The notes beneath the pieces are model-generated. The model had not been told where the DNA came from. It ran no database searches and saw only the letters and a program-made list of their open reading frames with translations. A stretch of DNA of 64,000 nucleotides from Caulobacteraceae bacterium (lineage in GTDB: Bacteria; Pseudomonadota; Alphaproteobacteria; Caulobacterales; Caulobacteraceae), in contig JAIEQC010000005.1 of NCBI GenBank assembly GCA_019748055.1, positions 1-64,000 on the forward strand, written 5' to 3'. How positions within the stretch are numbered: position 1 is the stretch's first letter; each line of letters begins with the position of its first letter. The position numbers were made by a program, and so were the translations under genes. Below, one piece after another: positions 5,631-37,525 of this stretch.

Positions 5631-7478
5631 ATGCCCATCCGCCGCCTCTCGCCCGAGACCGTCAATCGCATCGCCGCCGGCGAGGTGATCGACCGCCCGG
5701 CCGGCGCGGTGAAGGAGCTGGTCGAGAACGCCATCGACGCGGGCGCGACCTCGATCGAGATCCACGCCGACGGCGGCGGCCTGTCGCGCATCCTGGTGGC
5801 CGACGACGGCAAGGGCATTCCGAAGGACGAGCTCCCCCTCGCCGTCGAGCGCCATGCGACCAGCAAGCTGGAGCCCGACGACGCCGGCGACGTCGACCTC
5901 TTGCGCATCTTCACCCTGGGCTTCCGGGGCGAGGCCCTGCCCTCCATCGGCTCGGTCGCCCGCCTGTCGCTGACCGCCCGCACGGCGGGAGCGGAGGCCT
6001 GGGCCATGCAGGTCAACGGCGGCGCGGCCGTCGGCCCGGCCCCTGCCCCCTTCCCCGCCCCGCACGGCGCGCGCGTCGAGGTGCGCGACCTGTTCTACGC
6101 GACGCCCGCGCGGCTGAAGTTCATGAAGTCGGCCCGCGCCGAGGCCATGGCCATCACCGAAGAGATCAAGCGTCAGGCCATGGCGCATGAGGCGGTCGCC
6201 TTCACCCTGCTGCTGGACGGCCGCGCCGTGCTCCGCCTGCCCGCAGAAATGAAAGGCGACGAGGGCCGCCTGCGCCGCCTCGCCGCCCTCTTGGGCCGGG
6301 ACTTCGAGGCCAATGCCCTGCTGATCGACCAGACGCGCGAGGGTCTGCGCCTGTCGGGCTACGCCGGCCTGCCCACCTATTCGCGGGGCAATGCGGCGCA
6401 CCAGTTCCTGTTCGTCAACGGCCGCCCGGTGAAGGACCGGCTGCTGCACGGGGCCATCCGCGGCGCCTACGCCGACTTCCTGGCGAGGGACCGCCACCCG
6501 GCCGCCGCCCTGTTCCTCGACCTCGACCCGCTCCAGGTCGACGTCAACGTCCACCCCGCCAAGGCCGAGGTCCGCTTCCGCGACCCCGCCCTGGTCCGCG
6601 GCCTGATCGTCGGCGCCCTGCGTCACGCCCTGGCGGGCGCCGGCCACCGCGCCAGCACCACCGTCGCCGCCGACGCCCTCGCCGGCTTCACCGCCCACCA
6701 GTCGCCCGGCCACCGCCCGCCCCCCAGCGCGGCGGGCTTCAGCGGCTGGACCGGCTGGGACGCCCCCCGCCCCGCCCCGCAGATCATCCCCGGCCTGGAG
6801 GAGCGCAGCGCCCGCGTCGAGCCCGGCTCAGCCCCCGCCTACTCCCTACTGCCGACTGCCTACTCCCCGGAAGCCGCCCCGGCGGCGTCCGAAATCGACT
6901 TCCCCCTCGGCGCCGCCCGCGCCCAGCTGCACGGCACCTACATCGTCGCCCAGACCCGCGACGGCCTGGTCGTCGTGGACCAGCACGCGGCGCACGAGCG
7001 GCTGGTCTATGAGCGGATGAAGGCCCAGATGGCGACCGGCGCCGTGACCCGTCAGGCCCTGCTGAGCCCCGAGGTGGTCGAGCTGGACCCCGCCGAGGCC
7101 GACCGCGTGGTCGCCCGCGCCGACGAACTGGCCGAGATGGGCCTGATCGTGGAGCCCTTCGGCGGCGGCGCCGTGCTGGTGCGCGAGACCCCGGCCCTCT
7201 TGGGCGACACCGACGTCCAGGGTCTGATCCGCGACATCGCCGACGACCTGGCCGAACACGGCGCGGCGCTCAGCCTGAAGGAGCGCATGGCCGAGGTCTG
7301 CGGCACCCTGGCATGCCACGGCTCCGTCCGCGCCGGCCGCGTGCTCAGCGCGCCCGAGATGAACGCCCTGCTGAGGCAGATGGAAGCGACGCCGCACAGC
7401 GGCCAGTGCAACCACGGAAGGCCGACCTATGTGGAGCTGAAGCTGGCGGATCTGGAGCGGCTGTTCGGGAGGCGGTGA
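5631..7478 (+). CDS. mutL: DNA mismatch repair protein MutL
   Basis: [54 protein letters not shown]-terminal [10 protein letters not shown] and [12 protein letters not shown]. Confidence 0.97.
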
Positions 7479-7572
7479 GGGCAACCCAGTCTAGAGTGCT
7501 CCAGAAGCTACGTTGCACTACCATTTAGAAGCCAGCTTCCATGGACTATCCCACATAAACTGGGGCGATGCA

Positions 7573-9093
7573 TCAATCGAGGCGGGACTCCACCTCACAC
7601 TCGACGCCGTTATGGCGGAGGACGGCAGCAAACGCCGTCGCGTAAGCTTTGGCCCGATCGATCGACTGGCTACCGACGTGGGCAAATATCTGGGCCCCGG
7701 ACCGGTAATGTCTGTTGGCGTGACCCTGTTCCAATGCCCACCGGGCGAACCCTCGACGGGCGTCCGGGACGCGGACCCAAGCGAAGCCGCAAGCGCCTTC
7801 CATTTCGATACCGAAACCAACCACCTTCATTGGTGTCGGAACAGTCTTGTGGGCGGCGTGAATCCCGGCGGCGGTCGCAAGTTCATGTATCGCGGCCCAG
7901 CGCTCGGCACCCACGATGCTGGAGGGGACGATCGGAGGAGCCTCGCCTTCTCTTTGGTCTCGCTGCGCCGGAAAAGCCGTCGAGAGCCTCGGCTGCTGGC
8001 CAGGCTCGAATATCCAGTTCGTTTCCACTTGTGCGGTTGCCCCGTTAAGTCCGAGAATTGGCAGGGTCGCGTTAAAGCTGATGCCGAAGCCGCTCTCGAA
8101 GTGTTTGACGCCGAGATCGTCTAGGTTCGCACTTCGAAGGCCTTCGTGAAACTGCGCAGCGAGATAGCGCCAGTCCTGCTGCCGGATGCCGAGAACGTCG
8201 CTGAAGAACTTCGCCTTTGACCCGCCCTTCGGGTGGTTCGGATTGAGGAGATATCGGATGAACTTGGCTTCGGGCAGGTTCGCTTCAAGCGGGTTCGATG
8301 GGTCTTCCGTGACAAGAATCTCGAACTTCGAGGCTCCGGCCGGGCGCGGGCCGCGGGCGAGACCAGCTGCGACCCGCTCCTGAAGGGAAAACCGCCGCTT
8401 CCCTTCATACCGCTGCTGGGTGATTTCGCCCCGGGCGGATAGTTCGATGTCGGGGACCGGCGGGCGTAGTGCCTTCAGTTCGCCGTATGGGACCCAGCGC
8501 GCCCCACGCGGACTAAAACTTTCAGAACCTTCGAAGATGCTGTTCTGGGACTCGTCCCAATCCAGCTCCATTATCACCTCACCCCCGGCGATGACAGAAT
8601 CCTCGATCAGGAGTTCGAGGAAGACTGCTCGCTGAACAGGGTTGCCTAGGTCAAACTCGATGGCGCCTAGGTAAGCCATCGTCTCCTGCAGCGACGCGTC
8701 GATCGGCTGCTTCAGGTCAGCAGGCAGGGTCGGTACCGAGATGCAGTGGATGGAGCGGTTTGCAAATCGAACAGGGAAAGTCTCCAAATCGACTGAATGC
8801 CACTGGCCGGAGAGCGCATCTGCGAAATCCCAGACGAGGGTCCGGTATAGTTCCATGTCATACGAATGCGTGTAGCCCGATCTCCGGCCATCGCCGGTGA
8901 CCGCTGTCACCTTCGTTGCAAGTTCTGAGAGAAGCGCATCGCCGCGGCAAACCAGCGACCGGGTACGCCCGCCCGGATCCGCGGCGGACAGCGCCTTCAG
9001 AAAACCGGGGTCGAGCTCTAACCCCTGACGTTCCTTCGGCACCTCTAAGGCGCGATCAAACAGGAAAACCGTTGCTGATGTGCTTGAGGTCAT
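7573..9093 (-). CDS. Uncharacterised multidomain protein with DUF6883-like region and phage-protein-like C-terminus
   Basis: 506-aa ORF with plausible composition. Middle region LPEAKFIRYLLNPNHPKGGSKAKFFSDVLGIRQQDWRYLAAQFHEGL...VETNWIFEPGQQPRLSTAFP resembles DUF6883; C-terminus CGFAWVRVPDARRGFARWALEQG...SQSIDRAKAYATAFAAVLRHNGVECEVESRLD. Confidence 0.75.
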   Translation of the reverse strand: MTSSTSATVFLFDRALEVPKERQGLELDPGFLKALSAADPGGRTRSLVCRGDALLSELATKVTAVTGDGRRSGYTHSYDMELYRTLVWDFADALSGQWHSVDLETFPVRFANRSIHCISVPTLPADLKQPIDASLQETMAYLGAIEFDLGNPVQRAVFLELLIEDSVIAGGEVIMELDWDESQNSIFEGSESFSPRGARWVPYGELKALRPPVPDIELSARGEITQQRYEGKRRFSLQERVAAGLARGPRPAGASKFEILVTEDPSNPLEANLPEAKFIRYLLNPNHPKGGSKAKFFSDVLGIRQQDWRYLAAQFHEGLRSANLDDLGVKHFESGFGISFNATLPILGLNGATAQVETNWIFEPGQQPRLSTAFPAQRDQREGEAPPIVPSSIVGAERWAAIHELATAAGIHAAHKTVPTPMKVVGFGIEMEGACGFAWVRVPDARRGFARWALEQGHANRHYRSGAQIFAHVGSQSIDRAKAYATAFAAVLRHNGVECEVESRLD

Positions 9094-9218
9094 CGCTTTC
9101 GAATACCTTGGCTACCGGATCTATTGTAAGTCGAATTTTGGTTCCGGGCCTCCGACGCGCGGAGTCTTTTGGCGGTCGCAATGAGTTAGCATCCGACCAT
9201 CCTTTGCCCGTCACACTC

Positions 9219-9690
9219 ATGCCCTCCCTCCTCTTCGTCTGCCTCGGCAACATCTGTCGCTCGCCGCTCGCGGAGGGTGCGCTGCGCGCCGAGGCCGCCC
9301 GGCGGGGGGCTGGCGCTGACCGTCGACTCCGCCGGCACGGGCGGCCGGCACGCGGGCGAGGCGCCGGATCGGCGGGCGCAGGCGACGGCGCGGCGGCACG
9401 GGGTGGACGTCTCCGGCCTGCGCGCCCGGCAGGTGACGCCCGAGGACTTCCGCCGCTTCGACCATGTGATCGCGATGGATCCCGACAACCTGGCCGACCT
9501 GCGCGCCCTGGCCCCGATCGACGCCACGGCCCGGCTCAGCCTGCTTCTCGACTGGGTCCCCGGCCGCGCGGGTCAGGCCGTGGCCGACCCCTGGTTCGGC
9601 GACGAGGCCGGCTTCGAGACCACCTGGGCCGACGTCTCCGCCGCCGCCCGCGCCCTCGCGGACGCGCTCTCGGCCCACGACCGTTTCTGA
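9219..9690 (+). pseudogene. Low-molecular-weight protein-tyrosine phosphatase, apparent +1 frameshift
   Basis: MPSLLFVCLGNICRSPLAEGALRAEAARR in one frame, continued by LALTVDSAGTGGRHAGEAPDRRA...AMDPDNLADL...VADPWFGDEAGFETTWADV in another. The break is at a G6 run (9304-9309). Confidence 0.85.
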
Positions 9691-35617: not shown

Positions 35618-37525
35618 TCAGAACCGTCCAACCAGAAGCGGAACCAGACTACGCGCACCTTCGACCGTCAGATGATCATCATCCCGGAACAAGAAATTCC
35701 CGTCGCCGGTCACAGTCCGGCAACCAGCGGGCCCGCACAGAGACTCGATGGGCAAGACGATGGCGATGCCGTGCCGCTCTGCAACGCGCTGAAGTACCCT
35801 TGTCGTAGCGTCGATCACTTCTAGATCGCGCGGCGGCATGATTGCGCAGTGCTCCGTCCGTAATCCAACTTGCGTGGCTCGGGCCCAACAGAGGGTGGGT
35901 GCGATCATGAAGTCAGGTGTCGGGCCCCAAATTACCAGTTCCACATCCGCTCCCAGTTTCGAGCGAACCTGCCACACGCCTGCATCCAACTGCTTCTCGA
36001 ACTCCGCGAGTTTGCCGTTGGAGAGACGGACGTATTCGACCCAACGACCACTGATGACCACAAAGTCCGGCGGGCTCGCCTCAAGATCGTCAAGTACCGC
36101 CGAGTTGAAGCGTTCGCAGTCTTGAGGAGAGCCAAACAGTGGCATCGGCGGGCACGAGGACTTGCTTATGTGCCGCACGTTTGAGCCAGGCGCCGCTGCC
36201 ACCAACAGAGGTACGATGTGTTCGGCGTGGCTGTCGCCCCAGACCACGACGTCCCTCGCACCGAGACCTAGTGTGCAGGCGTCGCGGGGCGGCGGTACAC
36301 TGCCGCCGACATTGTGGCAGCTGTCGTGTGTATCCGGCAAAGAAGTGGAGGCAGACTGCGCGAGCATTACGCCTGGGGCTGCGCGAACCGGCAGGCCCTG
36401 CAGTCGTCCAAGCAAGGCCCCTACCAGAAACACAGACGCCAATGTCGCGACGCCCGCGCCCACCACAAAGAAGCCATGCCGTCCCGCACTTCTGAACGGA
36501 CGTTCCACCCAACGCCAGCTGGCCCACGCCATGCCGAAAGCGACGATCAGCGCAACAGCCGTCTCAAGGATGGTCAGGGGGCGAGACAAGACGAGCACAG
36601 GGAGGCTCAGAAGTGGCCAGTGCCAGAGATAGAGGGAGTAAGAGATCAGGCCGAGACCGACCGCAGGGGGACTTGAAAGGAGCTTGCCTGCGATCCCCTG
36701 GCCTTGAGCGCTGATAAGTAGAACGGTCCCCGCGCAAGGGACCAAAGAAGCCACCGCCGGCCAGGGGGCAGAAGCTCCCAAAGGCGAAAAGGCAACGAAG
36801 ATAAGCGCCGTCCCCAAAAAACCACACGCATTCCGGTACGACCTTGGAATCCGTTCATGCGGCAACGTCGCCAGAAGCGCGCCCAACAGCAGTTCCCAAG
36901 CGCGAGAACGCAACAGGTAGAAGGCCTCAGCCTCGGCAGCGTGCCAGCTCAGACGCACCGCCTCGGAAAACGACATCGTCGCGGCGGCGGCGATCACCAG
37001 CGTCGACCAGCGAGCCAACTTGGGATGAAACAGCACTAGCGTCGCGAGAGGCCAAAGGAGATAGAACTGCTCCTCGATCGACAGCGACCAGGTGTGCAGC
37101 AGTGGTTGGTAGGCGGCGTCGGGCGCGAAGTAGTCCGTGAGCGACAAGAAAAATCTGTTGGAAGACAGAGAAGCGACCGACGCGATCGACTGGCCCAGAA
37201 CGTCCAGATCCTGAGGGATCAGAATGATCAAGGCCACAAGGGTGACCGTCCCGATCATGACAGCCAAGGCCGGCAGAATGCGCCGCACCCGCCGTTCATA
37301 GAATGCGAGGATTCCGGAAAGTCCCCGCTCGCGTTCGCGCATCAAGATGCGGGTGATCAGGTAGCCGGAAATGACGAAGAACACGTCCACGCCGAAGAAG
37401 CCGCCCGGAACGAGCGCCGGCCATGCGTGCCCCATCACCACGGCTGATACCGCCACAGCCCTGAGGCCGTCGACGTCCGGCCGATACCCGCCACCAAAGG
37501 TTTCCCCGGCCGGAACCGACGTCAT
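35618..37525 (-). CDS. Acyltransferase 3 / SGNH family membrane acyltransferase (OafA-like)
   Basis: YRPDVDGLRAVAVSAVVMGHAWPALVPGGFFGVDVFFVISGYLITRIL; C-terminal SGNH DVVVWGDSHAEHIVPLL. Confidence 0.95.
   Translation of the reverse strand: MTSVPAGETFGGGYRPDVDGLRAVAVSAVVMGHAWPALVPGGFFGVDVFFVISGYLITRILMRERERGLSGILAFYERRVRRILPALAVMIGTVTLVALIILIPQDLDVLGQSIASVASLSSNRFFLSLTDYFAPDAAYQPLLHTWSLSIEEQFYLLWPLATLVLFHPKLARWSTLVIAAAATMSFSEAVRLSWHAAEAEAFYLLRSRAWELLLGALLATLPHERIPRSYRNACGFLGTALIFVAFSPLGASAPWPAVASLVPCAGTVLLISAQGQGIAGKLLSSPPAVGLGLISYSLYLWHWPLLSLPVLVLSRPLTILETAVALIVAFGMAWASWRWVERPFRSAGRHGFFVVGAGVATLASVFLVGALLGRLQGLPVRAAPGVMLAQSASTSLPDTHDSCHNVGGSVPPPRDACTLGLGARDVVVWGDSHAEHIVPLLVAAAPGSNVRHISKSSCPPMPLFGSPQDCERFNSAVLDDLEASPPDFVVISGRWVEYVRLSNGKLAEFEKQLDAGVWQVRSKLGADVELVIWGPTPDFMIAPTLCWARATQVGLRTEHCAIMPPRDLEVIDATTRVLQRVAERHGIAIVLPIESLCGPAGCRTVTGDGNFLFRDDDHLTVEGARSLVPLLVGRF

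What the first reader, a model, noticed from the sequence alone, without database searches (positions are those of the whole stretch)
7573..9093. Candidate undescribed system: composite DUF6883-like and phage-like protein in an atypical insert
Between mutL and the LMW-PTPase gene lies a single minus-strand gene with lower GC and different codon usage by eye. The protein has an unassigned N-terminal region of about 260 aa, then a segment that looks like DUF6883 (LPEAKFIRYLLNPNHPKGGSKAKFFSDVLGI...VETNWIFEPGQQPRLSTAFP), which I associate with toxin-type proteins. Its C-terminus (CGFAWVRVP...FARWALEQG...SQSIDRAKAYATAFAAVLRHNGVECEVESRLD) resembles small uncharacterised phage proteins of the GFAWV...QS.R..A.A.A..L...G..A..SR.D type. 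A standalone gene joining these parts could be a toxin or anti-phage effector. The function is unknown.
Basis: inference. Interest (0 to 1): 0.68.

Follow-up and report, generated by a model that had tools for sequence, protein, structure and literature searches.

The report
Orphan tRNase-like toxin fused to phage domain
Between two housekeeping genes sits a recently acquired gene that joins a toxin domain, predicted to cut RNA and elsewhere nearly always kept with its own antidote gene, to a phage-derived piece and an unknown piece but with no antidote, which suggests a self-contained one-gene switch that may shut a cell down when a phage infects it.

Summary
A 506-aa minus-strand gene lies between mutL and a LMW-PTPase gene (GC 0.61, GC3 0.69; window gene median GC3 0.88). 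It has PF21814 DUF6883 at 272-376 (E 2e-17), a C-terminus matching phage family phrog_22149 (E 4e-8), and an unassigned N-terminus. The architecture is not a chance fusion: six sequences carry all three parts (Alphaproteobacteria, Streptomyces; one is an IMG/VR contig) and a seventh is degenerate. It is sporadic (1 of 131 congeneric genomes); other congeners have an empty site. AlphaFold models of DUF6883, alone and in the full protein, both retrieve one solved fold first: CdiA-CT Kp342 (6cp9), a BECR-fold tRNase. Its active-site set (Lys, Tyr, His, Arg, Thr) maps to K277, Y281, H287, R369, T372. Elsewhere DUF6883 caps Rhs, haemagglutinin and phage minor-capsid proteins or stands alone, with a DUF4926-like neighbour (probable immunity partner) in 22 of 23 non-composite loci but in none of 7 composite loci. 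Three composite loci sit among defence genes, and the mutL-PTPase junction carries different low-GC cargo in congeners, including GmrSD_N+HEPN and HipA+HIRAN. Best reading: a self-regulated one-gene RNase effector, probably anti-phage. Toxin fold well supported; activity, trigger and defence role inferred.

The parts
7573..9093 (-). Composite gene, 506 aa (stop codon included)
   Evidence: full-length homologs
8314..9093 (-). N-terminal region, residues 1-260, no known family; seen only in this architecture; low-confidence alpha/beta prediction
7966..8280 (-). DUF6883 domain, residues 272-376; predicted BECR RNase fold of the CdiA-CT Kp342 type
8263..8265 (-). K277, counterpart of catalytic Lys; invariant in DUF6883
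8251..8253 (-). Y281, counterpart of catalytic Tyr; invariant in DUF6883
8233..8235 (-). H287, counterpart of active-site His; lost in G756
7987..7989 (-). R369, counterpart of R252 of Kp342; kept in this protein, replaced in the other composite members
7978..7980 (-). T372, counterpart of catalytic T255; Thr or Ser in all 16 rows of A4
7576..7938 (-). C-terminal region, residues 386-506; residues 434-506 match phage family phrog_22149
7479..9218 (.). Extent of the low-GC insert between mutL stop and PTPase start; in congeners this gap is 5-200 bp or holds other cargo
5631..7478 (+). mutL, left flank of the insertion site
9219..9690 (+). LMW-PTPase gene, right flank; its reading frame is broken near a run of G

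Best explanation
The gene is a horizontally acquired, self-contained effector. Its DUF6883 domain is a metal-independent BECR-fold endoribonuclease, most likely cutting tRNA (Lys-Tyr-Thr centre K277/Y281/T372 with H287 and R369). Elsewhere this domain has a small DUF4926-like partner that is probably its antidote; here it has none, and is flanked instead by a unique N-terminal region and a C-terminal region related to a phage protein family. The most likely mechanism is that one or both flanking regions hold the nuclease inactive and release it when a phage product, perhaps the phage counterpart of the C-terminal region, is present, so translation stops and the infected cell does not yield phage. 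Shown: the domains, their fixed co-occurrence across distant hosts, the mobility, the missing DUF4926 gene. Predicted by model and residue pattern: fold and active site. Inferred: nuclease activity, tRNA as target, autoinhibition, the phage trigger, the defence role.
For: Fold: AlphaFold of the domain (pLDDT 81) and of the full protein each retrieve all four 6cp9 chains first, probability 1.00, TM to target 0.60-0.75. Two sequence profiles also pick 6cp9 as best PDB hit, weakly (E 0.02 and 0.066), aligning its R..T to R369..T372. Kp342 active site K157, Y160, H170, R252, T255 and tRNA-Ile cleavage: PMC9086364. Toxin settings of DUF6883: Rhs protein of 2307 aa, phage minor-capsid fusions, haemagglutinin tip. 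DUF4926-like neighbour in 22 of 23 non-composite loci, none in 7 composite loci. Fixed three-part architecture; N- and C-parts not found alone in sampled genomes. Mobility: 1 of 131 congeners, empty sites, plasmid copies, integrase-like remnant beside tRNA-Thr in Devosia. Defence context: CARF6 and PDC-S37 genes (G756), GajA and ZorD/DpdE-like (Streptomyces), RmrA/RmrT, HEC-08 and Type IIG RM (L074); GmrSD_N+HEPN and HipA+HIRAN cargo at the same mutL junction in congeners.
Against: No activity has been measured. Foldseek E-values against 6cp9 are 0.003-0.018, not below 0.001, and the N-terminal half is modelled with low confidence. R369 is not conserved in the other composite members and G756 also lacks the His, so some members may be weak or inactive. 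Defence neighbours are seen in 3 of 7 composite loci, two of them related Streptomyces-type proteins; the window copy stands alone and no matched control of neighbourhoods was run. PADLOC has no model for the protein.
Confidence: 0.5

Rival explanations
1. The DUF6883 domain is no longer an active nuclease; it binds RNA or a toxin partner, and the protein protects the cell as a decoy or immunity factor against DUF6883-type toxins of rivals or phages.
For: Composite members have mostly lost the Arg, and G756 also the His, of the active-site set. Absence of the DUF4926-like gene could mean none is needed.
Against: Lys, Tyr and the Thr/Ser are kept in all full-length members and the window copy keeps all five residues.
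Confidence: 0.2
2. It is a polyvalent or cargo effector of a phage or plasmid, made to act in a newly entered host, now stranded in the chromosome.
For: C-terminal region is a phage family; copies lie on Methylobacterium and Streptomyces plasmids and on an IMG/VR contig; polyvalent proteins carry BECR RNase domains (PMC5512222).
Against: No capsid, portal or conjugation gene next to the window copy, Devosia, G756 or the Streptomyces-type copies; the defining context of polyvalent proteins is missing; the protein is small.
Confidence: 0.15
3. It is an antibacterial polymorphic toxin secreted to rivals, like the Rhs, haemagglutinin and capsid-fused DUF6883 toxins.
For: DUF6883 caps such proteins in other genomes.
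Against: No trafficking domain, repeat region or secretion gene; DUF6883 is in the middle, not at the C-terminal tip; no adjacent immunity gene.
Confidence: 0.07
4. Recently inserted selfish or decaying gene without a present function.
For: Sporadic; the G114 copy is broken by stop codons and a frame change.
Against: Intact open frame and conserved three-part architecture from Alphaproteobacteria to Streptomyces.
Confidence: 0.08

Closest known systems
CdiA-CT of Klebsiella pneumoniae 342 (PDB 6cp9), BECR-fold tRNase toxin
   Same: Best structural match of the DUF6883 model from two separate models; same set and order of Lys, Tyr, His, Arg, Thr residues
   Different: About 14-19% identity; Kp342 is the tip of a secreted CdiA protein with a CdiI immunity protein; here the domain is internal to a 506-aa protein without a recognised secretion module or immunity gene
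DUF6883 (PF21814) - DUF4926 (PF16277) pairs and DUF6883-tipped Rhs, haemagglutinin and phage minor-capsid proteins
   Same: Same toxin domain
   Different: No DUF4926-like neighbour; unique N-terminal region; phage-family C-terminal region after the toxin domain
CapRel-type fused toxin-antitoxin proteins that sense a phage protein (PMC9712102)
   Same: Proposed logic: toxin and regulator in one chain, released by a phage protein; works-like comparison only
   Different: CapRel is a nucleotide-transferring toxSAS enzyme with a different sensor domain; no homology; no trigger shown here
PBECR domains of polyvalent proteins (PMC5512222)
   Same: BECR-type RNase domain in a multidomain protein linked to mobile elements and phage domains
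   Different: No virion or conjugation context for most copies; different accompanying domains
phrog_22149 phage proteins, e.g. Caulobacter phage Seuss gene 108
   Same: C-terminal about 73-120 residues are of this family
   Different: Stand-alone small proteins of unknown function in phages; here fused to a toxin domain

Membership tests
DUF6883 (PF21814) | Pfam profile above gathering score | tested here: met
   63.7 bits against cutoff 27; all five aligned members match
BECR-fold tRNase toxins of the CdiA-CT Kp342 type | BECR fold | tested here: met
   By prediction only: 6cp9 top in two Foldseek searches, probability 1.00 but E 0.003-0.018
BECR-fold tRNase toxins of the CdiA-CT Kp342 type | Lys-Tyr-Thr centre with His and Arg | tested here: met
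   K277, Y281, H287, R369, T372 in the window protein; R..T aligned directly by profile, K/Y/H by motif order only
BECR-fold tRNase toxins of the CdiA-CT Kp342 type | tRNA cleavage | not testable with these tools
   needs enzyme assay
DUF6883-DUF4926 toxin-immunity pair | Adjacent DUF4926-like gene | tested here: not met
   No hit up to E 10 in the whole window or six other composite loci; present in 22 of 23 non-composite loci
Polymorphic secreted toxin | N-terminal trafficking module, toxin at the C-terminal tip, downstream immunity gene | tested here: not met
Polyvalent proteins of phages and conjugative elements | Encoded among virion or conjugation genes | tested here: not met
   Window, G756, Devosia and Streptomyces neighbourhoods lack them; the Methylobacterium copy is on a conjugative plasmid
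CapRel-type fused toxin-antitoxin | toxSAS catalytic domain with its own sensor domain | tested here: not met
   No such Pfam or PADLOC hit
Known anti-phage defence systems | Match to a PADLOC model | tested here: not met
   0 families up to E 10
phrog_22149 | PHROG profile match | tested here: met
   C-terminal 73 residues, profile 41-121 of 121, E 3.7e-8; weaker in G756 and Devosia, none in Methylobacterium and Streptomyces

The most novel reading that the evidence does not exclude
A new kind of one-gene phage-sensing immunity: a BECR tRNase that has shed its antidote gene and is held off by regions fused to it, one of them captured from the phages it detects, so that the phage's own version of that protein releases the nuclease.
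Probability: 0.25. Interest if true: 0.78.

Novelty: new variant of a known kind. Interest (0 to 1): 0.56.

Why it matters
No paper in the library searched names DUF6883 and one mentions DUF4926 in passing. This work gives the domain a likely fold and active site, gives the DUF4926-like proteins a likely role as its immunity partner, and shows a rare architecture in which the partner is gone and phage-derived sequence takes its place. If the fused regions control the nuclease, it would be a further case of a competition toxin turned into a phage sensor, and the shared phage family names a trigger that can be tested directly. The mutL-PTPase junction is also a place to look for further small defence genes in this genus.

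Tried and rejected
NCBIfam, PADLOC and PDB sequence searches with the window protein alone found nothing. A first scan of genome contigs and a scan of viral contigs with the single protein found nothing; alignments were needed. C-terminal scans of viral contigs and a phage tblastn found no closer phage relative. A lectin match of the C-terminus in PDB sequence searches (E 0.02-0.5) was rejected: one short stretch, no support from the fold search. A de novo TIM-barrel hit with profile A7 (E 8.6e-6) was rejected as a repeated short helix with no significant single stretch. The single-chain phmmer of the Rhizobium tip found no PDB relative. N-terminal region: no family, no relatives outside this architecture, low model confidence, so no fold is claimed. 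No Rfam RNA and no convincing promoter or terminator signal in the insert. No flanking direct repeats that mark the insertion. Vertical inheritance and a housekeeping role rejected.

Full report
What is there. The ORF at 7573-9093(-) encodes 506 aa. Its GC is 0.61 in surroundings of 0.70-0.77; its GC3 of 0.69 is the second lowest of 49 called genes (median 0.88), against 0.95 for mutL. Pfam finds DUF6883 at residues 272-376 (E 2.3e-17) and PHROGs finds phrog_22149 at 434-506 (E 3.7e-8). PADLOC, NCBIfam and the PDB sequences give nothing for the single protein.

It is a family with a fixed architecture. tblastn finds full-length relatives on Methylobacterium radiotolerans pMRAD03 (36% identity, 99% of the length) and on a Streptomyces plasmid (29%, 92%). 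Genome searches add G756 of the same taxonomic family (51% identity), Devosia naphthalenivorans (30%), a Streptomyces-type copy on an IMG/VR contig (82% identical to the Streptomyces protein), and a degenerate copy in G114, broken by stop codons and a frame change. The C-terminal region is present in all. Searches with the N-terminal region alone and the C-terminal region alone found only the same composite genes in the bacterial genomes sampled, so the three parts travel together.

It moves. One of 131 congeneric genomes carries the composite gene; four others have only a DUF6883 domain elsewhere. In nine congeners mutL is followed by the PTPase gene after 5-200 bp, with no insert. In others the same junction holds different compact low-GC cargo: GmrSD_N with a RiboL-PSP-type HEPN protein (L076), HipA_C with HIRAN (L078), a SEC-C protein of 537 aa (L077), two unassigned genes (L075), and a 264-aa protein with no clear family (L079). 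Eight of the thirty mutL loci read, this window included, have clearly low-GC sequence next to mutL (in one more, L039, the PTPase region itself is low). The junction is an insertion hotspot, and part of its cargo is of defence type.

The toxin domain. In two AlphaFold models made from different alignments (domain alone, nine sequences, mean pLDDT 81; full length, three sequences, low overall but better in this region) the first four PDB matches are the four chains of 6cp9, the CdiA-CT toxin of Klebsiella pneumoniae 342, with probability 1.00 and TM-scores to the target of 0.60-0.75; the E-values are modest, 0.003-0.018. Two sequence profiles also rank 6cp9 first in the PDB, weakly (E 0.02; E 0.066), and both align its Arg-x-x-Thr with R369..T372. 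A third profile (A7) did not find it. A review gives the active site of Kp342 as K157, Y160, H170, R252, T255 and its action as cleavage of tRNA-Ile (PMC9086364). DUF6883 has an invariant Lys and Tyr four residues apart (as in the related EC3006 toxin), a His six residues on, and a C-terminal Arg-x-x-Thr/Ser: K277, Y281, H287, R369, T372 here. Lys and Tyr are invariant and Thr/Ser is kept in all 16 rows of the alignment; the Arg is kept by this protein but not by the other composite members, and G756 has also lost the His.

What DUF6883 does elsewhere. The domain ends a 2307-aa Rhs-repeat protein (L028), two phage minor-capsid fusions (L064, L066), and a Rhizobium haemagglutinin (L008); it also stands alone. 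In 22 of 23 non-composite loci a small ORF of the DUF4926 type lies next to it, often overlapping or touching. The profile used for that count was built from 18 of these ORFs, so those are found by construction; the free evidence is that four loci outside the training set have one too, that Pfam names the family in two of the four examples tested, and that the database annotation names it in two. The other two examples tested (L008, L017) are too divergent for Pfam, and are the weakest members. This is the genomic pattern of a toxin with its immunity protein. None of seven composite loci, the whole 64-kb window included, has a DUF4926-like frame up to E 10. The composite protein is therefore a toxin-type domain that lacks its usual partner and has two fused regions.

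Neighbours. PADLOC families near composite genes include CARF6 and PDC-S37 in G756, a ZorD/DpdE-like helicase and GajA on the Streptomyces plasmid, and RmrA, RmrT, HEC-08 and a Type IIG restriction enzyme with an integrase-like gene (by eye) near the IMG/VR copy. The Devosia copy lies near an HNH-type protein and an integrase-like remnant (DUF6538) beside tRNA-Thr. The Methylobacterium copy is on a conjugative plasmid near a helicase gene. Enrichment was not tested against controls, and the sample is small.

How it most likely works. A BECR RNase with an intact centre and no antidote would kill its host unless it were restrained. The simplest restraint is the rest of the protein. The C-terminal region is homologous to a family of small phage proteins (Caulobacter phage Seuss gene 108), so one specific idea is that it binds or mimics something that the phage protein also binds, and that infection shifts this balance and frees the nuclease. 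This follows the logic of CapRel, in which a fused antitoxin domain is relieved by a phage protein (PMC9712102), without homology to it. The fold is well supported by prediction; activity, substrate, restraint and trigger are inference. Decoy, polyvalent cargo and secreted toxin are the main rivals and are weighed in their own sections.

Verdict. The finding is real and more than a lone chimera: a rare, mobile, three-part family built on a toxin domain whose fold, active site and probable immunity partner can be proposed here. It is a new variant of a known kind (toxin domain reused in a multidomain effector). The defence role remains to be tested.

Noticed in passing
window 9219-9690(+), break near 9303-9311: The LMW-PTPase gene is split over two frames near a run of six G: the N-terminal 30 aa and the rest (Pfam LMWPc, E 1.6e-23) are in different frames, while it is intact in congeners. 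Sequencing error or a real frameshift cannot be told apart here.
   Followed up: partly
mutL-PTPase junction in congeners: L075, L076, L077, L078, L079: The junction next to mutL is an insertion hotspot in the genus with different compact low-GC cargo, among it GmrSD_N+HEPN and HipA+HIRAN pairs and a 537-aa SEC-C protein.
   Followed up: partly
L006, L007, L010-L024, L061-L067: DUF6883 and DUF4926-like proteins are almost always neighbours, also when DUF6883 is the tip of Rhs, haemagglutinin or phage capsid proteins; DUF4926 is a likely immunity or antitoxin family. In L011, L014 and L024 the order is reversed.
   Followed up: partly
L064 83-1570 and L066 3-1121: Phage minor capsid protein 2 (PF06152) fused to DUF6883 with a DUF4926-like gene behind it: a MuF-like phage toxin arrangement for this domain.
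   Followed up: no
L026 102-3203: In G756 an ORC-CDC6-like protein, a CARF6 protein and a methyltransferase-like protein lie in a row a few kb from the composite gene; possibly a CARF-linked defence operon.
   Followed up: no
window 35618-37525(-): Another low-GC gene (GC 0.62, GC3 0.71): acyltransferase 3 fused to SGNH, probably a surface polysaccharide O-acetyltransferase.
   Followed up: no
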